In this document: piece by piece, positions 55,470 through 64,000 of the stretch
Numbering within the stretch: position 1 is the stretch's first letter
How the letters are laid out: every line of letters begins with the position of its first letter
Origin: Halobaculum sp. XH14
Lineage (GTDB): Archaea; Halobacteriota; Halobacteria; Halobacteriales; Haloferacaceae
DNA length: 64,000 bases
Direction: 5' to 3'
Assembly (NCBI RefSeq): GCF_032116555.1
Contig: NZ_CP134949.1
Location: 2,666,001-2,730,000, forward strand
Made by a program: the position numbers and the translations under genes
Notes under the pieces: model-generated
Database searches by the model: none
What the model was told of the DNA's origin: nothing
What the model saw: only the letters and a program-made list of their open reading frames with translations

Positions 55470-56627
55470 TCAGATCTTTCCTTCGGCCCAAGCAACTGTG
55501 ATTTTATTTTCCTGTGATTTTGCAGCATCATCGAGGATACGACTACACATAGATAGGACCTGTCGGATATTGCCCTGTGATGTTTGGAGAATCAAATCTA
55601 AGGCCTCCTCAGAGAATGGGTCTATCCCCTCATTTTCAGTAGAAGACACCCTCTCTTGATCTAAATAATCACGCACCAACTCATAGAGGTTCTCACTTGT
55701 GAGGGGTTTCAGGGCAACTTCTTCCCCAATTCGCTCACTGAACGCGTGGTACTCACTCATTACGTCTTGCCAGACCTCGGGAGCACAACCAAACAGCATG
55801 CATAGTCCCGAACTGTTCTGGTCCATCAAGTGCCGAATGCTGTTGAGTGTTGCCTGTTCGTCCTTAGGTGAGAGTCGTGCGATGCTCTCGAACTCGTCGA
55901 CGAAGACGAAAATACCGGTGTAGCCGAGTTCGAGGAGCATATTTTTGAGTGCGGTGAAGGCCCGAACACCCATCGTGTCGTCGTCGAGTGCGCTGTGGAT
56001 TTCCATCTCCTTCCGCTGCTCGTATCGAATCCCCTCTGCGGTGAGCCACTGCCACGCGTAGAGATTCGTGTCCTCGTACACCATGTGGATAATGGCACGC
56101 GCAAAGTCGGCGAACTTCGTCACATCGCTGAGGCGGCGAATCGACTCGGGGACAATTTCCGAGAGCAGCACATCGCCTTCGTCTATCAGCGATTCCATCC
56201 CACTGGCACCAATCGGGTTCGTGTCGGTGACATCTCTCGCCACAGATGCAAGGAACTCGTACGCGAGTTCTTGGAGTCGGTTGAAGCCCAGATCGTAGAC
56301 GAACTCGTGGTAGATGTCGAGGAATCCTTCACCAGGTTGGGCGACATAGCCCACGACGACGTCGTCGCGACCGCGGAGTAGCGAGCGCGTGTATTTGAGC
56401 GTATGAGACTTCCCATTTCCATACTTTCCGGTGACCACCAGATGCTTCGACTTCCCAGTAGACAACATCGACGAAACCGTGGAGCTGATCTTGTCCGAAA
56501 CGTGCTGCTGCCCACAGTAAATCTCGGGGTCTTCAGCTGGAACTGGACTGTATGGGAAGGGGTTCGCCTCTAGGTCGTACTGTGAGTAGTCTTGCTGTTC
56601 GTCGGTGATCGTGAATGCGTCGGACAT
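55470..56627 (-). CDS. P-loop ATPase of the Dpd-like island (BrxD/DUF2791-like)
   Basis: 385 residues. The AAA+ type core has Walker A GKYGNGKS (residues 67-74), Walker B GIFVFVDEFESIA (about 240-252) and a sensor-like LCMLFGCAPEVW. The C-terminal part (ALDLILQTSQGNIRQVLSMC) resembles the lid of Orc/Cdc6-like and BREX BrxD-like ATPases. Known Dpd clusters also contain an ATPase (DpdH), but identity to it cannot be judged here. It overlaps the upstream winged-helix gene by one base (TAATG). It is the last gene of a three-gene operon with a TGT-like enzyme, which suggests DNA sensing or remodelling in modification or restriction. Confidence 0.75.
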   Translation of the reverse strand: MSDAFTITDEQQDYSQYDLEANPFPYSPVPAEDPEIYCGQQHVSDKISSTVSSMLSTGKSKHLVVTGKYGNGKSHTLKYTRSLLRGRDDVVVGYVAQPGEGFLDIYHEFVYDLGFNRLQELAYEFLASVARDVTDTNPIGASGMESLIDEGDVLLSEIVPESIRRLSDVTKFADFARAIIHMVYEDTNLYAWQWLTAEGIRYEQRKEMEIHSALDDDTMGVRAFTALKNMLLELGYTGIFVFVDEFESIARLSPKDEQATLNSIRHLMDQNSSGLCMLFGCAPEVWQDVMSEYHAFSERIGEEVALKPLTSENLYELVRDYLDQERVSSTENEGIDPFSEEALDLILQTSQGNIRQVLSMCSRILDDAAKSQENKITVAWAEGKI

Positions 56628-57523
56628 TATGTAGCCTCCTGCGAGTATTCGATGTCGCGGTCATGCACCGCGAGGTAGTAGTATTTCTTATCGAACTGTT
56701 CAACGCCGGCCATGACCTGCTGAGTGGACTGAGATGTGCTAACTAAACCGTCCTCTTCGGAGAGCGCAATACGCTTGATGCCGAGTGCTGCATCCTTCGC
56801 AGCTGTATCCATCGGCGCTCCCGACAGCTCGAGTTTACCGACGTTCTGTCGGCAAAGCGAGAGCAGCGCTGCGTCGAAATCATCGCGAGTGCAGCCGAGT
56901 CGTTCACAGGTCTCCTCACGGAGACGTGGAATCGACAGGTAGCGCTGTCGGAGGTCAACACCTGCTCTCTCTTCAAGATCGTCGTGCACGTCCAAAAGCA
57001 GGTAGTGGAAGTTAGCGGATATCGCCGCCTGGTCTACCAAGTAGTAGTCACCTGTGAACGCGTTCCGTTGGACTCGGCCCAACCGCTCAGCCCAATCCCC
57101 GAGGACCTCCACACTCGTTTGGTTATACGAATATGGGCTGAACTCTTGTGCCTCTTCCAATTGAGTCAGGAGTGTGTCTAAACCAGCGTTTTCGACGTTT
57201 TCGAGAACCTCGATGAGTGTCCCGTAGTGGGGACTACGTGTCTCTAAGATTGTACTTACTTGACTCCAGTCCTCGTCGCGAATTGCACTAAGGAAGGACA
57301 AACCGACATCAGTCGTCGTATAGACTGGTTCCTCGCCAGAGTCATTTTCGTCGAGCAAGGAGATACGCTTTGCTTCGAGGATTGTTTCACGCGCACGGCG
57401 GTGACTTACCTCCAATTCGTCCTCAAGATCTTCAGTTGACTTGCTAACTGCTTCACAGGCATGAGTCAGTTCAGCCAACCGGCTGAGAGTGACTGGTCTT
57501 ACAGTTGGTCTCTCATCGCTCAT
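56627..57523 (-). CDS. Winged-helix protein coupled to TGT-like enzyme and ATPase
   Basis: 298 residues. The N-terminus has a winged helix (RLAELTHACEAVSKSTEDLE, then VSHRRARETILEAKRISLLD). The C-terminal part may hold a second winged helix (IPRLREETCERLGCTRDDFD, ALLSLCRQNVGKLELSG). There is no catalytic motif. Both ends overlap neighbours (ATGA with the TGT-like gene, TAATG with the ATPase), so all three are made in fixed proportion. It may be the DNA-recognition subunit; a DpdG-like role is possible. Confidence 0.65.
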   Translation of the reverse strand: MSDERPTVRPVTLSRLAELTHACEAVSKSTEDLEDELEVSHRRARETILEAKRISLLDENDSGEEPVYTTTDVGLSFLSAIRDEDWSQVSTILETRSPHYGTLIEVLENVENAGLDTLLTQLEEAQEFSPYSYNQTSVEVLGDWAERLGRVQRNAFTGDYYLVDQAAISANFHYLLLDVHDDLEERAGVDLRQRYLSIPRLREETCERLGCTRDDFDAALLSLCRQNVGKLELSGAPMDTAAKDAALGIKRIALSEEDGLVSTSQSTQQVMAGVEQFDKKYYYLAVHDRDIEYSQEAT

Positions 57524-58554
57524 GTGAGCCTCCTCATCTGTTGCTTCGCGGTTTCGTATGCCCGCTTAGTGACCTCGTTCCCGCTGAAGCGCAAGTCGAG
57601 GTACTCCTCAATATCTCGACCAGACTCGGCGACATAACGGAAGCGTCGCAGTTCGGTCGCAAGTGCCCAGAGATTATGCTGGGTCAGGGCAGTTCGGTCT
57701 TCGCGAATCTCGTCGAGTTCTTTTTGTCCACACACTGGGCAGGGACAGGGGAGCCTGTCTAATTCCTCGATATTCCGTATTTCTTCCCCGCCGAAGCCCG
57801 GAATCAGGTAGTTCCGGTTGCCTGCACTACGAATGAAGGCCGAAGAGTCGAAACTGTCGACCCCCAAGTAAAGCAGCAGTGGTTGATAGACGAGACCTCC
57901 GAGACCATACACGTGCAGGTGCTTGTCTGTCGCGTTTCGTGCAGATAGTATCAGTTTTGTTATTTTTTTATAATCGGTTCGTATAGGAACCATACTTCCG
58001 AGGGCATACCCATCGAATTCGCCGTTCTTCTCCAGGTATTGTATGTTATTCCGGATCGTCTCTGGATCGTAACCATGGACACTCGCGAAGAGAAGGCCCA
58101 CCCCATCGTGATGGTCGCTCGCTTTGAGTGCGTACTCGATGCTTTGGTCGATTCGCCGTTGGTTTTCTGCTGCCCGGTTCTCCCTTGAGAGAGGAATGTC
58201 GACTGTACCGAGGATGTCCGCGTCCAATTGACTCTGGGTATCAAGCGTTTTTGCTGGGGTAGTGTCCACTTCTTCGTTGGCGAAATCGAACCCACCACTA
58301 TCCGCGAAAACGATGGTGTCCTCGGGGACGTCCATTTCTTCTCGTAATGTTACACCATTCGATATTCTCTGCCACATTGGGTCCCGGTTGCGGATCGATC
58401 TCGCGTTGATCATCGCTGCCGAGAACTCTGGGATCGTGCCGACGTACGTCGGTGTATTGTCACTCGACCGCTTCCCGATGTTTCTGACGGGAAAGAGAAC
58501 AGGGGTGTCTAATTCTCCTCGCGGGAGGTCGAGTTTCCTGCGTCGATACAACAT
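57520..58554 (-). CDS. Short DpdA-like transglycosylase (TGT fold)
   Basis: 344 residues. The tRNA-guanine transglycosylase barrel is recognisable: FADSGGFDF (Asp85, substrate site), LHVYGLGGLVYQPLL, then LGVDSFDSSAF with Asp236 as candidate nucleophile. The zinc site is complete: CPCPVC (Cys270, 272, 275) and His293. TGT enzymes exchange guanine for a 7-deazaguanine base; DpdA members do so in DNA. It lacks a PUA domain, which archaeal tRNA TGTs normally have. It starts an operon with a winged-helix protein and an ATPase, which also points away from tRNA. The substrate is inferred. Confidence 0.78.
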   Translation of the reverse strand: MLYRRRKLDLPRGELDTPVLFPVRNIGKRSSDNTPTYVGTIPEFSAAMINARSIRNRDPMWQRISNGVTLREEMDVPEDTIVFADSGGFDFANEEVDTTPAKTLDTQSQLDADILGTVDIPLSRENRAAENQRRIDQSIEYALKASDHHDGVGLLFASVHGYDPETIRNNIQYLEKNGEFDGYALGSMVPIRTDYKKITKLILSARNATDKHLHVYGLGGLVYQPLLLYLGVDSFDSSAFIRSAGNRNYLIPGFGGEEIRNIEELDRLPCPCPVCGQKELDEIREDRTALTQHNLWALATELRRFRYVAESGRDIEEYLDLRFSGNEVTKRAYETAKQQMRRLT

Positions 58555-58579: not shown

Positions 58580-58590
58580 CTTATTTAGTG
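58580..58590 (-). promoter_or_regulatory. Promoter of the TGT-like/winged-helix/ATPase operon
   Basis: The minus strand reads cactaaataag, 26-36 bases before the ATG at 58554, a strong archaeal TATA element at leaderless distance. Confidence 0.6.
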
Positions 58591-58693: not shown

Positions 58694-61597
58694 TCACTCA
58701 GACTCGAATTCCGTTTGTGGTGGTACTTCCTCTACTCGCTGACATACCTCTTCGATAGTTTCCGGGCGAAGAGTATCGACGGTATCGATGTATCGAGCGA
58801 AGTTCTTCATATAGTGTCCCTTGAGTCCAACAACGATCGTGCTATGTTCTTTTGCGTCCTCTGTCCGGGCGGGGATGGATTCGATATTGTCAAACTGGTC
58901 TTCGACAAGTTCGCGGTTGAACACCACACCAATCTGGTCGGAACGTACCTCCTGAACCATCTCGTCGATGTCGATACTGGTGTAGTAGTCCTTCCCAAGG
59001 GTAAAGAAGACGATATCGTAATCGGCCTCTTGAAGGAGGTTTCGTAGGTCTTCTTGGATGTAGAGCTTCGCAGATCGCTCTCTAATGTCGCTAACGTTCA
59101 TTGAACTGAACGATACCTCGTAGGGTGGGAGATACTCGTCTTCTGCGACAAGGCCAAACCCTGCACTCACGAAGTAACGGTCGACGTCGTGGCCTTGTCG
59201 CAAAAGCCATCTAACTGCACTCTTGACGTGTTTTTGCTGGCGTCCAGTGTACAGGTCGCGTGCCGCAATACCTGGCACATTATCACGAGCGAGGAGGTCT
59301 TCACGAGAGAACTGAAGAGTTTCCTCTTCACCGAAAATGGGTGCGTCGTCTGGTATCTCCTTTGATCCTGAACACTGGTCGATGACAAGGATGTCCAATC
59401 CGTTCTCGGTATCGATCTTAGGTGGATGAGGCACGAAGTTATCACTGGCTGCATAGTTCTGCCCGCAGACCTCGAGTATTTCATCTCGCAAGTCTCGGGG
59501 GTTGCTATTGATGTGAACCTCGCAACCGTTTTCACGAGCAACCGCTACAACTTCTTCGTCAAGTTCACCATCAAATGTGTGCACGAAGAGGTGTTTGTAC
59601 CTCGCTGCTTGTTCGCCGACGTTTGCTGCCATACGATCTGGGGCGAACGAGACGAGCGACGGGGTTTCTTCCCACCACTCACTCACCCCGTTCGCATCTA
59701 GTACACCAATCTCTGCGACCGGAAGGTCGTGTGTCTGGCCCCAGAACGAGGAGTGTTTGTCGCGCAGATAGTCTTCAACAGTTTCGTAGCCACTGAGGGC
59801 CGCATCACCCTGGGTCGCGACGAGGATCTTCGGAAGATCTTCCTCGAATTCATCATAGAAGCGTCGTGTGTTGTGGAACCCTCGTCTCCGATTCCGATCG
59901 TTCCCCCGGAAGATGCAAACCTCGATACCGTACTCTCTACAAATTGGACAGTCACATTTCTCCCACGGACGACTTCGAAGGGTGTCTTGATACTCCTGGA
60001 GCAGGTCGTCGTCACCGATCCAAGCGGCGTAATCCCGGACAATCGCCCAGACTCGATCATAGTCACTGACAACGTACGGCTCGTCCAAAACGGTCTTCGC
60101 GTGTGGGAACCCCTCAAATACGTCTTCCGCCGTACTCAGCAGTTCGTCGTACTCCTCGAACGAGACGGGAGCAGTCGGGGCATCTTCCCGCAGGAGTTTG
60201 ACTAGCCTACTACGGAGATTATCACTGAAGCTCGCCTGAAGCTCGCGTCCATACTCGAAATCCGTTCGGAACGCTCTTTCTATGTCCTGTAGGAGCGACT
60301 CATCATACTGATCATCGTAGCGGTGTTCCAGTAGATATTCTCTCGTCGCTGGTAGCACCTTCTCAGCCCGCTTGTACCAACTCTCGAGAGAATTACGAAT
60401 CGAATCTCCTGTATCGTATGCTCGGAGTGCCACCAGTGTTTCACGACCGCGTAAAGACTTTTCAACAGCTTCGTCGAGATCGTCCCGGCTCGATGGGTAG
60501 CGAACTCGAATAGCATCGTAGCGTTCGTCGTTATCAAGACGATAATTCTGTCCACCTGTCCACGCCGAACGGAGCATACTCGCGCTGTCGAAACTGGTCA
60601 TCCCCGACCGACCGATCGTCTCGAACGCCTCAGTCTTCGCGAAGCCGAAGACGTGGGAGTCGATACGGGTGTTGTGTTCCCGTTCGAACTGCTTGATTGT
60701 CTTCCCGACCCTTTTGACGATCCCACGGACGTCGTGAGTTGGACTGCCTGCAACGCCCCCGATTCCGAGGTAGTCGTAGCCAATATCAAGCACTTCCTCG
60801 GTGGCCTTACTGTATGAGTCAGGGTTCCATCCTTGGATGGCGACCATCAGTCGAAACGGGTAGTCACGACGCTGGTAGAGGTCATACATCTCTCGGGCGT
60901 TCCGCAGCGTCAGGTCGTAGCGGAACTCGGCGTCGTGTTCGCGATAGACCGCACGTGAATCCTGTGCGAGATGGAACAGAACGGTATCAATGTCTCCCCG
61001 AAAGTCCTCAGCGATGAACGGTTCAACTTCTGTGTCGGGATCAGTACGAATCGTCGGCTCGTACTCGTCGACATATGAGGGCCATTCCTCTGGCCATTCC
61101 TCGATCATAACATCAACGACGTCGGTGATGGGATCGGGGATGTCGCCTTTGTTGAGCTCCTCGTCGAACGCCCGTTCGTCAAGATAGAGTCGTCCCTTGT
61201 CCTTTCCCGACCCTAGAACGAGGTGGTCGATAGTGACGCCAACAGTAACGTCCAGCGTCTCGTAGAAGTCAAGCATATCCTCGTTCCCGTACGGTGGGAA
61301 CGGGAGCGACTTGTACCCCCAAGCGCCGCAGTCACTGATCGTCGGCAACCAATTCGGGATAGAAAGAACGGGGTCATCGTAGACACCATACTGGGCGAGT
61401 CGCTCGGCTTTGCGGTTTGTCTCTTCGACCTGTTCGCGGGAGATTAGAACCCCGTCTACTGGTGTGGTTTCGGGCTCGAAAATGTCCCAAATATAATCCA
61501 AATCGCGCTCTTGACGGTTCAGGGTAGAGAATTCGTCGTGTTCGAAATCGTAGTGAGAGTCGACTGCGTCGTCCCACTCAGGTACGTAAAACCGCAC
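58694..61597 (-). CDS. Large DpdA-like transglycosylase fused to a DUF6884-like domain
   Basis: 967 residues from GTG 61597. An N-terminal TGT-like barrel has ISDCGAWGY (Asp89), LGIGGVAGSP and MTSFDSASML (Asp337, candidate nucleophile). A zinc site follows as CDCPIC (548-553) with His575. An unassigned region (about 585-720) leads to a C-terminal DUF6884-like domain (about 734-900): LVIDQCSGSKE, AARDLYTGRQQKHV and YFVSAGFGLVAEDEYLPPYE. It resembles DpdA enzymes that put preQ0 into DNA. The second domain could change the inserted base, as the CSxxK region recalls archaeosine synthase; that is inference. A minus-strand atttatagg box lies about 40 bases upstream. Confidence 0.78.
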   Translation of the reverse strand: MRFYVPEWDDAVDSHYDFEHDEFSTLNRQERDLDYIWDIFEPETTPVDGVLISREQVEETNRKAERLAQYGVYDDPVLSIPNWLPTISDCGAWGYKSLPFPPYGNEDMLDFYETLDVTVGVTIDHLVLGSGKDKGRLYLDERAFDEELNKGDIPDPITDVVDVMIEEWPEEWPSYVDEYEPTIRTDPDTEVEPFIAEDFRGDIDTVLFHLAQDSRAVYREHDAEFRYDLTLRNAREMYDLYQRRDYPFRLMVAIQGWNPDSYSKATEEVLDIGYDYLGIGGVAGSPTHDVRGIVKRVGKTIKQFEREHNTRIDSHVFGFAKTEAFETIGRSGMTSFDSASMLRSAWTGGQNYRLDNDERYDAIRVRYPSSRDDLDEAVEKSLRGRETLVALRAYDTGDSIRNSLESWYKRAEKVLPATREYLLEHRYDDQYDESLLQDIERAFRTDFEYGRELQASFSDNLRSRLVKLLREDAPTAPVSFEEYDELLSTAEDVFEGFPHAKTVLDEPYVVSDYDRVWAIVRDYAAWIGDDDLLQEYQDTLRSRPWEKCDCPICREYGIEVCIFRGNDRNRRRGFHNTRRFYDEFEEDLPKILVATQGDAALSGYETVEDYLRDKHSSFWGQTHDLPVAEIGVLDANGVSEWWEETPSLVSFAPDRMAANVGEQAARYKHLFVHTFDGELDEEVVAVARENGCEVHINSNPRDLRDEILEVCGQNYAASDNFVPHPPKIDTENGLDILVIDQCSGSKEIPDDAPIFGEEETLQFSREDLLARDNVPGIAARDLYTGRQQKHVKSAVRWLLRQGHDVDRYFVSAGFGLVAEDEYLPPYEVSFSSMNVSDIRERSAKLYIQEDLRNLLQEADYDIVFFTLGKDYYTSIDIDEMVQEVRSDQIGVVFNRELVEDQFDNIESIPARTEDAKEHSTIVVGLKGHYMKNFARYIDTVDTLRPETIEEVCQRVEEVPPQTEFESE

Positions 61598-61677: not shown

Positions 61678-62349
61678 CTAATGGAAATCAGATAGTGTAG
61701 GGCCAGTGTGAATCTGTATCGAATCCCACTGGTCAGGGCACTCTGCTTCAACTTGCTCAAAAAAACCGTCACCAATAGCGGTCAATACGTAATTGTTCGA
61801 CCGAATCTTCGCGAACTCTAAGTGGACTAACCACTTATAGTGTACTTTAGCACGCGGCACCCACGAGCTATCACTATCGACATCGGGGTAGAGATGGCCG
61901 ATTCGCTCACCGAATCTCTGTGCCGCTGGTGAGTCTTGAGTTGTCGGAACGGTCTCAACTGTAAGTTGGTGGAGAGCTGCCAACATTGGCAAACGGTGCT
62001 CATAAAAAATAACCATCCAGAGAAGGGCCTGTTCGGTACACGATAGCGAATCTTTCACTCCGACGCCTAACTTTGCTCCTGAATGACTCTGCTGCCGTGC
62101 ACGTTCATACGCTTCGGTCAGCCATCGCCCTCTTTCAGTTAGTTCGCCTTCATCCAGAAGGTCAAGCAGTTCCAAGAGTCGAGTCACATGCTGAACTTTT
62201 CTTGACCCAACGACACCTCTGTTGAAGGCTAATGTCCGCAGATCGGCATTCGGCTCACGCCGTCGCAACTCAAGCAATTCGCAAGCTAGCGGAAGGTCGT
62301 CCCAATCCGGCTGAACCGTCTCGAGGTGCCTGACTGACGACGTTTCCAC
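61678..62349 (-). CDS. Hypothetical protein of the Dpd-like island
   Basis: 223 residues with GTG start at 62349. It is mostly helical and contains a winged-helix-like segment (VTRLLELLDLLDEGELTERG, RWLTEAYERA) and a second one near the end (HYKWLVHLEFAKIRSNNYVL). No catalytic motif is visible. It is divergent from queD with 108 bases between the starts, so both may share control. A role as a specificity or regulatory protein is possible; I do not recognise its family. Confidence 0.6.
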   Translation of the reverse strand: METSSVRHLETVQPDWDDLPLACELLELRRREPNADLRTLAFNRGVVGSRKVQHVTRLLELLDLLDEGELTERGRWLTEAYERARQQSHSGAKLGVGVKDSLSCTEQALLWMVIFYEHRLPMLAALHQLTVETVPTTQDSPAAQRFGERIGHLYPDVDSDSSWVPRAKVHYKWLVHLEFAKIRSNNYVLTAIGDGFFEQVEAECPDQWDSIQIHTGPTLSDFH

Positions 62350-62457: not shown

Positions 62458-62913
62458 GTGCATCTTGAACAAGAATCGGTCCCTGATCTTACTGAGTCTG
62501 GTAAGAGAACACTATTCGTAGGAAAGGACAACCCGATCCGAATCAGCACCGGGCATCGCCTCCTCCACCATGATGGGAAATGTAGCCGTCCACACGGCCA
62601 CAACTATGAGATCTCGGTTGAGGTCACCGGATCTCTCACTCAAGATGGCTGGGTTGTAGACAAAGGAGATATTACCTCAGTAATAGATGACTGGGACCAC
62701 CGCTTCCTCCTCGAGAAGGACGACCCGCTCATCGACGCCTTCGAACAGAGCGGCGACGGTGATTCACTCGTCGTTCTTGAACACCCACCGACCGCGGAAG
62801 TGATGGGGCTCGTCTTGGAACAAAAACTCCTCGAGACACTCCCAGAGTCACTCTCAGACATCTCAGTGACGGTGCGGGAGACATCAGAGCTCTGTGCGGG
62901 GGCGACGCACTGA
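62458..62913 (+). CDS. queD: 6-carboxytetrahydropterin synthase QueD
   Basis: 151 residues with GTG start at 62458. Zinc and catalytic residues are present: ISTGHRLLHH, KCSRPHGHNYE (Cys and His-x-His), and DDWDHRFLLEKDD with the catalytic Asp-His pair; VRETSELCAG ends the active site. It converts dihydroneopterin triphosphate to 6-carboxytetrahydropterin, the second step to preQ0. Its stop overlaps the queE start (TGATG). Being in the Dpd-like island, it probably supplies preQ0 for DNA, perhaps also for tRNA archaeosine. Confidence 0.92.
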   Translation: MHLEQESVPDLTESGKRTLFVGKDNPIRISTGHRLLHHDGKCSRPHGHNYEISVEVTGSLTQDGWVVDKGDITSVIDDWDHRFLLEKDDPLIDAFEQSGDGDSLVVLEHPPTAEVMGLVLEQKLLETLPESLSDISVTVRETSELCAGATH

Positions 62914-63686
62914 TGCCAGTCAGTTCGACAGCTGATGAGCAGCCAACGGACGATGTCGATGGCGCGGCGCTGCCGGTCAACGAGCTCTTCTACTCGCTCC
63001 AGGGCGAGGGCAAACTCACCGGGACACCGTCGGTGTTCGTCCGAACGAGTGGCTGTAACCTCCGATGTTGGTTCTGTGACTCCTACCACACCTCATGGGA
63101 ACCGACCCACGCTACCATAAGCGTCGACGACATCGTCAAGGAGGTCCAGTCACACGACGACGCCGACCACGTCGTCCTCACTGGTGGCGAACCGCTCATC
63201 CATGACGATTCGGTCACCCTCCTGAAACACCTTGATGATCTCGGGTACCACACCACCGTCGAAACCAACGGCACCATCTACCGCGACGCCCCCATCGATC
63301 TGGCGAGTATCAGTCCGAAACTCGCCACCAGCACACCCACCACCGAGAAAGACCCCAAGGGCGATGGCGAGTGGGTGGACCGCCATGAGGACCGTCGTAT
63401 CGACCTCAACACGCTGAGCGCGCTCGTCGACGACTACGGTGCACAACTCAAGTTCGTCGTCACTGGCCACGACGATCTGCCCGAGATCGAATCCCTCCTC
63501 GCCGACGTCCGCTCGAAAGCGGCGAGTCACATCCCTGACTCCGACGTGTTGTTGATGCCGGAGGGAACGACTCGGGACGAACTCGACGCTCGCCGGAACG
63601 AGGTCGCCGACCTCGCGATGGAGTACGGCTACCGATACACGCCCCGCTTGCACGTCGACTTGTGGAACGACGCTCCCGAAACGTAA
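62913..63686 (+). CDS. queE: 7-carboxy-7-deazaguanine synthase QueE
   Basis: 257 residues. The radical SAM motif is SGCNLRCWFCDSYH (CX3CX2C, about residue 49-56), preceded by NELFYSLQGEGKLTGTP, the QueE start signature. HVVLTGGEPLIH is the SAM-binding GGE motif. It converts 6-carboxytetrahydropterin to 7-carboxy-7-deazaguanine. It is translated with queD (one-base overlap) and is followed after one base by folE. QueC, the next enzyme, is not in the window. Confidence 0.94.
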   Translation: MPVSSTADEQPTDDVDGAALPVNELFYSLQGEGKLTGTPSVFVRTSGCNLRCWFCDSYHTSWEPTHATISVDDIVKEVQSHDDADHVVLTGGEPLIHDDSVTLLKHLDDLGYHTTVETNGTIYRDAPIDLASISPKLATSTPTTEKDPKGDGEWVDRHEDRRIDLNTLSALVDDYGAQLKFVVTGHDDLPEIESLLADVRSKAASHIPDSDVLLMPEGTTRDELDARRNEVADLAMEYGYRYTPRLHVDLWNDAPET

Positions 63687-63687
63687 T

Positions 63688-64000
63688 ATGACGAGTACGC
63701 ATTCCCAATTCGCAACTGATGAGGTGGAATCAGACATCGACTACGAGAAGGCCCAGCGCGGCGTTCGCCTCCTGTTAGAGGCTGTCGGCGAGGACCCGGA
63801 CAGTGACGCGCTCGCGGAGACCTGCCAGCGGCGCGTTCCGGACACATTCGCGACACTCACTGAAGGTCAACGGGAGGCCGCGAAGCCGACGATGCGGACC
63901 TTCGACGCCGAGACAACCGACCTCGTCGTGAAAACCGGCATTCCCGTATACTCGCTGTGTGAACACCACTTGCTGCCGTTCTTTGGAACAGTCCATCTCG
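63688..64000 (+). CDS. folE: GTP cyclohydrolase I FolE, bacterial type (cut by window end)
   Basis: The first 104 residues are visible. IDYEKAQRGVRLLLEAVGED is the N-terminal helix region of type IA enzymes, and VYSLCEHHLLPFFGTVHL contains the zinc and catalytic Cys-His-His motif. It opens the GTP ring to make dihydroneopterin triphosphate for QueD. Most archaea use the unrelated MptA (type IB), so a FolE1 in this operon points to horizontal origin and a dedicated function. It begins one base after the queE stop. Confidence 0.92.
   Translation, partial: MTSTHSQFATDEVESDIDYEKAQRGVRLLLEAVGEDPDSDALAETCQRRVPDTFATLTEGQREAAKPTMRTFDAETTDLVVKTGIPVYSLCEHHLLPFFGTVHL

What the first reader, a model, noticed from the sequence alone, without database searches (positions are those of the whole stretch)
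55470..58554. Three-gene coupled unit: TGT-like enzyme, winged-helix protein and BrxD-like ATPase
The genes overlap as ATGA and TAATG and share a strong promoter. The winged-helix plus ATPase pair resembles regulator-ATPase pairs of BREX-like defence systems. Coupling to a base-exchanging enzyme is an unusual combination that may sense unmodified foreign DNA or direct the modification.
Basis: partly seen in the sequence, partly recalled or inferred. Interest (0 to 1): 0.7.

Follow-up and report, generated by a model that had tools for sequence, protein, structure and literature searches.

The report
Dual-transglycosylase DNA modification module, haloarchaea
Three overlapping haloarchaeal genes appear to form the targeting half of a machine that swaps guanine in DNA for a modified base, probably marking the cell's own DNA as part of an antiviral system.

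Summary
The trio is real and conserved. TGT2 (57520-58554), a tandem winged-helix protein (56627-57523) and a BrxD-like ATPase (55470-56627) overlap by 4 and 1 nt. Of 391 class genomes, 57 carry the full-length winged-helix gene, all 57 the ATPase, 55 also the neighbouring DpdA. So this is a haloarchaeal Dpd-type (7-deazaguanine in DNA) locus with two transglycosylases and no recognisable DpdB. Trio and DpdA stay together while neighbouring restriction cassettes change, so I assign the trio to modification, not sensing. TGT2 keeps its catalytic and zinc residues in 49 of 49 sequences; the ATPase models as an ORC/Cdc6-TnsC-type AAA+. Most likely the winged-helix protein and ATPase load or aim base exchange on DNA, replacing DpdB; that step is inferred. 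BREX, DpdG and DpdH membership is not supported. The loci resemble BRIGADE (2025 preprint, halophilic archaea), whose main text names no transglycosylase or BrxD. A 96%-identical locus lies on the Haloarcula vallismortis contig whose DpdA was proposed to modify virus HVTV-1.

The parts
57520..58554 (-). TGT2: second transglycosylase, 344 aa, TgtA-like catalytic domain only
   Evidence: Pfam TGT 92 bits; TIGR00432 TgtA 132 bits, below its cut-off of 350 and ending at model position 347 of 441; D85, D236, C270, C272, C275, H293 invariant in 49 of 49; closest solved chain arcTGT 1iq8, E 5.5e-30
56627..57523 (-). Winged-helix protein, 298 aa, tandem winged-helix domains
   Evidence: AlphaFold2 mean pLDDT 84.5; MarR-type domain at residues 12-88, Z 12; weak whole-length resemblance to RPC62, SelB and FokI; no Pfam, NCBIfam or PADLOC family
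55470..56627 (-). BrxD-like AAA+ ATPase, 385 aa, ORC/Cdc6-TnsC type fold
   Evidence: Pfam BrxC_BrxD 60.5 bits; K73, D244, E245, R299 invariant in 49 of 49; model pLDDT 89.3; archaeal ORC2 1w5t Z 19.1, rmsd 3.7 over 261 residues; TnsC Z about 15
58581..58588 (-). TATA-like element of the trio's promoter (27-34 nt before the TGT2 ATG)
   Evidence: A+T peak conserved at this position over related loci; function inferred
58694..61597 (-). DpdA fused to a DpdC-like DUF6884 domain, 967 aa
   Evidence: NCBIfam DpdA 281 bits, cut-off 200; PADLOC DpdA 252 bits and DpdC at 736-842; Pfam DUF6884 30.7 bits, cut-off 30; D337, C548, C550, C553, H575 invariant in 49 of 49, D89 in all 47 rows without a gap there
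61678..62349 (-). 223-aa protein of unknown family, neighbour
   Evidence: no family; its family occurs in 14 of 62 related stretches
62458..62913 (+). QueD-like, preQ0 precursor synthesis
   Evidence: Pfam PTPS 71 bits; QueD 70.6 bits, below its cut-off of 89.25
62913..63686 (+). QueE-like radical SAM enzyme
   Evidence: best NCBIfam match QueE, 95.7 bits, below its cut-off
63688..63999 (+). start of FolE; QueC follows outside the window (L013:2293-2988)
   Evidence: same families annotated FolE and QueC in Halorientalis litorea

Best explanation
The trio is the second half of the DNA-modification core of a haloarchaeal Dpd-type (BRIGADE-like) system. FolE/QueD/QueE/QueC make preQ0 (from family knowledge). 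DpdA and TGT2 are both catalytically intact transglycosylases expected to swap guanine in DNA for a 7-deazaguanine base; the DpdC-like domain would convert preQ0 to the amide form. The ORC/Cdc6-TnsC-type ATPase and its winged-helix partner bind or load on DNA and aim or license the base exchange, filling the role that DpdB has in Salmonella-type islands. The mark protects host DNA from the linked, interchangeable helicase-nuclease cassettes. Shown here: conserved coupling, constancy with DpdA, intact residues, predicted folds, missing DpdB, variable cassettes. Inferred: DNA as substrate of TGT2, targeting by WH and ATPase, the protective role.
For: Co-occurrence over 391 genomes: WH 57, ATPase with WH 57 of 57, DpdA with both 55 of 57, hypergeometric p 1.6e-63 for WH with DpdA, uncorrected for relatedness. 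Of the two exceptions one has the trio at a contig edge (G380) and one a truncated TGT2 (G060); the single DpdA without WH (G189) is at a contig edge. Pairwise identities inside the trio track each other (r 0.91-0.92, 49 loci) and DpdA less tightly (0.82-0.83). The restriction-type neighbours change (PLD-type 18, DpdH-like 12, PD-(D/E)XK 5, YprA-like helicase 30 of 62 stretches) while the trio stays. Catalytic and zinc residues invariant in TGT2. DpdB over its cut-off in 0 of 30 trio genomes, no match at all in 28. ATPase fold ORC/TnsC. preQ0 genes or a queuosine-precursor transporter adjacent. Bacterial relatives with long DpdA also carry a second TGT nearby: Nostoc and Paenibacillus plasmids. 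Published support for the locus family: HVTV-1 encodes no DpdA yet about 30% of its G is dPreQ1, and the authors point to the host DpdA on AOLQ01000002 (PMC6884629, passages); that contig carries this locus.
Against: No modification was measured here in any carrier of the locus. TGT2 is closer in sequence to tRNA-type arcTGT than to DpdA, so its DNA substrate is inferred. No physical contact between the four proteins was tested. In L102 a trio of one lineage sits beside a DpdA of another (TGT2 96.5% but DpdA 59% identical to L098), so a tight DpdA-trio complex is not required. Weak DpdB-like matches lie beside the locus in 2 of 30 genomes. Fold similarity to ORC or TnsC shows no function.
Confidence: 0.62

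Rival explanations
1. Sensor/restriction role: the WH-ATPase pair reads unmodified foreign DNA and activates the neighbouring helicase-nuclease; TGT2 is a reader of the base rather than a writer.
For: BrxD-like ATPases belong to defence systems; NCBI calls the protein 'BREX system ATP-binding domain-containing'; Shango SngB also matches (34.9 bits); helicase and nuclease cassettes lie alongside.
Against: The trio stays while these cassettes change, and some of them bring their own ATPases, a DpdH-like protein or a ~1136-aa AAA protein; TGT2 is catalytically intact in 49 of 49; in G157 the trio is followed on the same strand by DpdA and the preQ0 genes (L107).
Confidence: 0.17
2. TGT2 and DpdA are the two subunits of one heterodimeric transglycosylase, as in eukaryotic QTRT1/QTRT2 (recalled), and WH-ATPase do something else, such as loading.
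For: Active TGTs are known to be dimers (stated in PMC6884629, passage); DpdA and TGT2 co-occur almost always; long-DpdA bacteria also have a second TGT.
Against: Both partners keep the full catalytic set, unlike a structural subunit; DpdA can be swapped under a constant trio; TGT2 is coupled to WH and ATPase, not to DpdA.
Confidence: 0.11
3. TGT2 modifies an RNA (tRNA or another RNA), the WH protein regulates the operon and the ATPase is an accessory.
For: TGT2 is nearest to arcTGT among solved structures; the first WH domain is MarR-like.
Against: TGT2 matches the TgtA model only to position 347 of 441 and no RNA-binding domain was hit; 4 of the 5 trio genomes checked also hold the two housekeeping matches that fit TgtA and ArcS (G000, G092, G029, G401; G157, a draft, showed neither); co-occurrence with DpdA.
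Confidence: 0.06
4. The WH-ATPase pair is simply a BREX or Dpd (DpdG-DpdH) regulator-ATPase pair beside an unrelated transglycosylase.
For: Pfam BrxC_BrxD match; DpdG is 291 aa and precedes DpdH in Enterobacter.
Against: BrxD 46.1 bits against 350; no DpdG/DpdH similarity by profile; TGT2 is coupled to the pair in 55 of 55 loci.
Confidence: 0.04

Closest known systems
Dpd (7-deazapurine in DNA) systems, Salmonella type
   Same: DpdA above cut-off, DpdC-like DUF6884 domain, preQ0 genes nearby, DpdJ-like helicase in the neighbouring cassette
   Different: DpdC fused to DpdA, a second transglycosylase, no DpdB over cut-off, WH-ATPase pair unlike DpdG/DpdH by sequence
BRIGADE (Bell et al. 2025 preprint, PMC12458937)
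   Same: halophilic archaea only, predicted 7-deazaguanine cluster, YprA-like helicases, PLD or PD-(D/E)XK nucleases at many of the related loci
   Different: its main text has no mention of TGT, transglycosylase or BrxD (word counts 0); at the window's own locus only one YprA-like helicase and no PLD or PD-(D/E)XK match was found
BRC (BREX-related capture) systems, PMC12839542
   Same: BREX-type proteins together with a TGT; a PglZ-like protein in the window's own cassette
   Different: BRC has HerA/FtsK, DUF6079, DUF4007 and GNAT, and its authors report no DpdC; none of these families was hit among the genes tested here
BREX type 2 BrxD / Shango SngB ATPases
   Same: same Pfam family (BrxC_BrxD)
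   Different: far below the BrxD cut-off; no BREX core gene set
Tn7/CAST TnsC and ORC/Cdc6 AAA+ proteins
   Same: predicted fold; DNA-loading matchmaker ATPases that work with target-selector proteins (recalled)
   Different: no transposase or origin; the partner is a base-exchange enzyme
Second haloarchaeal dual-TGT locus (L019-L026)
   Same: DpdC-like DUF6884 protein, two TGTs, an ATPase, YprA-like helicases, preQ0 genes in some
   Different: ATPase is of the GHKL type and the second TGT carries DUF5591; no DpdA, WH or BrxD-like gene found there

Membership tests
Dpd system | DpdA transglycosylase | tested here: met
   NF041059 281.2 bits, cut-off 200
Dpd system | DpdC | tested here: met
   C-terminal fusion: PADLOC DpdC E 1.9e-6, Pfam DUF6884 30.7 bits against 30; marginal scores
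Dpd system | DpdB | tested here: not met
   NF041060 over cut-off in 0 of 30 trio genomes incl. the window's own; weak matches in 2. DpdB is reported dispensable in certain clusters (PMC12839542, passage), so this argues for a variant, not for exclusion
Dpd system | preQ0 synthesis genes linked | tested here: met
   QueD, QueE, FolE, QueC families at 62458 onward
Dpd system | restriction genes DpdD-DpdK | tested here: inconclusive
   window's own cassette: helicase matching DpdJ (E 1.5e-34) but DruE better; no DpdK, G or H match among the five genes tested
Dpd system | 7-deazaguanine present in DNA | not testable with these tools
   needs mass spectrometry
BREX (BrxD) | BrxD above the equivalog cut-off | tested here: not met
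   NF033438 46.1 bits against 350
BREX (BrxD) | PglZ, BrxC, PglX/BrxX, BrxL beside it | tested here: inconclusive
   only a weak PglZ match (E 3.6e-7) in the five-gene cassette outside the window
DpdG / DpdH | sequence profile match of WH and ATPase | tested here: not met
   PADLOC none at E <= 0.1; hhalign about 5% or less against Enterobacter DpdG/DpdH; 53% over 41 Walker-A residues against an unnamed Caulobacter 1093-aa protein. Folds were not compared
BRIGADE | halophilic archaea only | tested here: met
   36 of 36 genome loci and 8 of 8 plasmids with trio genes are haloarchaeal
BRIGADE | 7-deazaguanine gene cluster | tested here: met
BRIGADE | two YprA-like helicases | tested here: inconclusive
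   one (1282 aa plus a separate 226-aa Zn-domain gene) in the 19 kb of L013; relatives show up to two, within truncated stretches
BRIGADE | PLD or PD-(D/E)XK nuclease | tested here: inconclusive
   none matched in the window's own cassette; PLD-type family in 18 and PD-(D/E)XK in 5 of 62 stretches
tRNA TgtA | TIGR00432 above cut-off | tested here: not met
   132.2 bits against 350

The most novel reading that the evidence does not exclude
An ATP-licensed, two-enzyme DNA base-exchange machine: an ORC/TnsC-like ATPase and a tandem winged-helix reader select DNA sites and deliver a dedicated transglycosylase (TGT2), working beside DpdA-DpdC, in place of DpdB. Target choice in 7-deazaguanine DNA modification would then work like target choice in Tn7 transposition or origin loading, and two different transglycosylases might write two different marks or strands.
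Probability: 0.33. Interest if true: 0.76.

Novelty: new variant of a known kind. Interest (0 to 1): 0.6.

Why it matters
How a transglycosylase picks guanines in DNA is, as far as I know, open in Dpd systems; here a predicted DNA-binding protein and a loader-type ATPase are coupled to one, in 57 of 391 genomes of the class, under names such as 'hypothetical protein'. It also gives a concrete candidate, testable by gene removal, for the unexplained 30% dPreQ1 in the DNA of virus HVTV-1, which encodes no DpdA. The constant core with exchangeable restriction cassettes suggests that one DNA mark serves many effectors.

Tried and rejected
Rejected: (1) the trio as a BREX regulator-ATPase pair. (2) WH = DpdG and ATPase = DpdH (separate DpdH-like genes). 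(3) A phage origin: no TGT2 match at E <= 1e-6 among 50,697 phage records and none confirmed in viral contigs (55 stretches matched a pattern, none confirmed). (4) A tRNA enzyme. (5) A common regulatory element before DpdA and TGT2: upstream stretches printed side by side showed no obviously shared motif; no statistic was run. (6) The exact place of TGT2 in the TGT tree: TGT2 is one clade (100/100) on the TgtA side, away from DpdA, but the joins of Nostoc TGT, Paenibacillus TGT and E. coli Tgt rest on long branches and are not used (17 of 56 TGT2 sequences put in).

Led nowhere: no solved relative of the ATPase by sequence and only E 0.22 for WH. Whole-length Foldseek matches of WH have TM-scores of 0.2-0.3 and are only a lead. 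Papers on Salmonella Dpd, DpdA/DpdB biochemistry and a 2024 review were not held, so statements on DpdB rest on passages of PMC12839542 and PMC11888242. Supplements of the BRIGADE preprint could not be read (no look-ups allowed), so I cannot say whether its gene lists include this trio. Searches on whether the trio is in print; none of their listings named it, and of the papers found I read passages of five (PMC12839542, PMC6884629, PMC11888242, PMC12458937, PMC8651126).

Limits of counts: neighbour counts come mostly from 14-20 kb stretches, some cut by contig ends, and are lower bounds; the 62 stretches include plasmids that repeat a genome already in the set and L013, which lies beyond the trio. 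ORFs there were called by a home-made acidity rule, which mis-split some genes (for example WH missing at L065, L069, L079). The co-occurrence p-value ignores relatedness. Of the 59 WH matches I dropped G063 (E 6e-4, stop inside) and G078 (57-residue fragment). Alignments used 29-31 of about 57 loci and 30 of the 35-36 extracted named loci, window included. One search kept 49 loci with all four genes full length.
Full report
Observation. The first is a transglycosylase (Pfam TGT, 92 bits), the third a BrxC_BrxD-type ATPase (60.5 bits), the second matches no family. Across 55 loci in which both TGT2 and WH were extracted, 51 have the same 4-nt TGT2/WH overlap and four have gaps of 1-2 nt; for WH/ATPase 53 of 55 overlap by 1-11 nt. 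A TATA-like peak of A+T lies 31-36 nt before the TGT2 start in these loci.

What surrounds it. Directly upstream, on the same strand, 58694-61597 encodes a DpdA (NCBIfam 281 bits, cut-off 200) with a DpdC-like DUF6884 domain at its C-terminus. Divergent from it are QueD- and QueE-like genes, then FolE and QueC beyond the window. Further on lie a 631-aa protein with a weak PglZ match, two proteins without a family, a 1282-aa helicase matching DruE and DpdJ, and a Zn-domain protein. So the finding sits inside a Dpd-type locus.

Conservation. Of 391 genomes of the class, 57 hold a full-length WH (two further genomes gave a fragment or a doubtful match), 58 hold the ATPase (one a fragment), and 56 hold a strong DpdA; WH and ATPase coincide in 57 of 57, all three in 55 of 57. 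The misses are two contig-edge cases (G380 lacking DpdA, G189 lacking WH) and one locus with a truncated TGT2 and no DpdA (G060). The family was found only in haloarchaea: 36 confirmed loci of 57 pattern matches in the collection of one genome per species, 8 plasmid records of 72,556, none in 50,697 phage records, none confirmed in IMG/VR. Pairwise identities inside the trio correlate at r 0.91-0.92, with DpdA at 0.82-0.83 (49 loci). In L102 (a genome whose contig length fits Halorubrum ezzemoulense DSM 17463) the trio and DpdA come from different lineages, so the trio is one inheritance unit and DpdA an exchangeable partner.

Constant core, changing cassettes. In 62 stretches the trio stays with DpdA/DpdC and often with preQ0 genes or a queuosine-precursor transporter, while neighbours vary: YprA-like helicase 30, PLD-type protein 18, DpdH-like 12, PD-(D/E)XK 5 (lower bounds). 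The window's own cassette recurs beside the trio of G157 (g1254 86%, g342 74%, PglZ-like 60% identity in the best pieces) although TGT2 is only 53% identical there. This is my main reason for assigning the trio to the modification side.

Proteins. TGT2 keeps D85, D236, C270, C272, C275 and H293 in 49 of 49 sequences, and DpdA keeps D337, C548, C550, C553 and H575 in 49 of 49 with D89 in all 47 ungapped rows; their roles as general acid/base, nucleophile and zinc ligands are recalled from TGT structures. TGT2's nearest solved relative is arcTGT 1iq8, DpdA's is DNA-guanine transglycosylase 7ui4. TGT2 ends where the TgtA model has about 94 further positions. The WH model (pLDDT 84.5) has a MarR-like N-terminal domain and, by my reading of its secondary structure, further winged-helix-like units. 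The ATPase model (pLDDT 89.3) superposes on archaeal ORC2 (Z 19.1, rmsd 3.7, 261 residues) and on TnsC (Z about 15). DpdB is over its cut-off in 0 of 30 trio genomes.

Bacterial parallels. Long-DpdA loci on Nostoc and Paenibacillus plasmids also carry a second, short TGT near DpdA that matches the TGT2 profile (hhalign 98.5% and 97%), but WH and ATPase have no match there. A third long-DpdA plasmid (Allocoleopsis) showed no second TGT in the 16.6 kb seen. These few cases only suggest that a second transglycosylase is older than the haloarchaeal WH-ATPase pair.

Literature. BRIGADE (PMC12458937, passages) is a Dpd-like group found only in halophilic archaea, with a 7-deazaguanine cluster, YprA-like helicases and PLD or PD-(D/E)XK nucleases; its main text does not name a transglycosylase or BrxD. 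BRC systems (PMC12839542, passages) combine a TGT with BREX parts but differ in the rest. Hutinet et al. 2019 (PMC6884629, passages) found about 30% of G as dPreQ1 in HVTV-1, which encodes no DpdA, and proposed the host DpdA EMA11768 on AOLQ01000002. That contig (L114; same length as G092:C2) carries the trio with WH 96% and TGT2 98% identity and the DpdA-DpdC fusion at 95%. Whether EMA11768 is the fusion or TGT2 I could not check; no other TGT-family match was found on that contig. The virus paper PMC8651126 (passages) adds that a haloarchaeal virus, HRTV-29, carries its own DpdA.

Mechanism and status. Shown: coupling, conservation, intact residues, predicted folds, no DpdB, changing cassettes. 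From family knowledge: TGT-type enzymes exchange guanine; DpdA acts on DNA; DpdC makes the amide; ORC/TnsC-type ATPases load or license DNA-bound machinery. Inferred: TGT2 acts on DNA; WH and ATPase aim it. I give 0.62 to the modification-core reading and 0.33 to the bolder ATP-licensed two-enzyme version. It is a new variant of a known kind (Dpd/BRIGADE-like), not a BREX system.

Noticed in passing
L019:7735-13172, L020-L026: A second haloarchaeal locus type: DUF6884 protein, ~415-aa TGT, GHKL-type ATPase (HATPase_c_3) and a ~670-aa TGT-DUF5591 protein, in some near preQ0 genes and YprA-like helicases; a parallel two-TGT-plus-ATPase design without DpdA.
   Followed up: partly
upstream of TGT2 in L086, L087, L094, L096, L017, L088, L105, L018, L091, L106: An inverted repeat of the form TTGGT-n-ACCAA or CTTTG-n-CAAAG overlaps or precedes the TATA-like box, as if a regulator bound there; the window's own promoter lacks it.
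   Followed up: no
L149:11576-12049: An EVE-domain gene, a fold linked to reading modified bases, lies between DpdA and the trio on Haloarcula sinaiiensis pHsi139.
   Followed up: no
L148:10153-10812, L150:20566-21216 and 9 further stretches: A gene of the family annotated csa3 (CARF protein) heads the DpdH-like cassette, suggesting nucleotide-signal control of the effector genes.
   Followed up: no
L102 (G304:C69): Chimeric locus: Halorubrum-type trio beside a DpdA 94% identical to the window's, with two sets of QueD/QueE genes.
   Followed up: partly
L151 and G283:C3: Natronococcus plasmid with one intact and one decayed copy of the core (split ATPase and DpdA).
   Followed up: no
G185:C4:122047-123102 and G293:C1:843077-844132: DpdB/DndB-like genes below the cut-off lie next to the trio locus in two genomes.
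   Followed up: no
L063:16534-19944 and relatives: A ~1136-aa cassette protein has an N-terminal AAA match and a piece about 30% identical to the C-terminal half of the trio ATPase.
   Followed up: no
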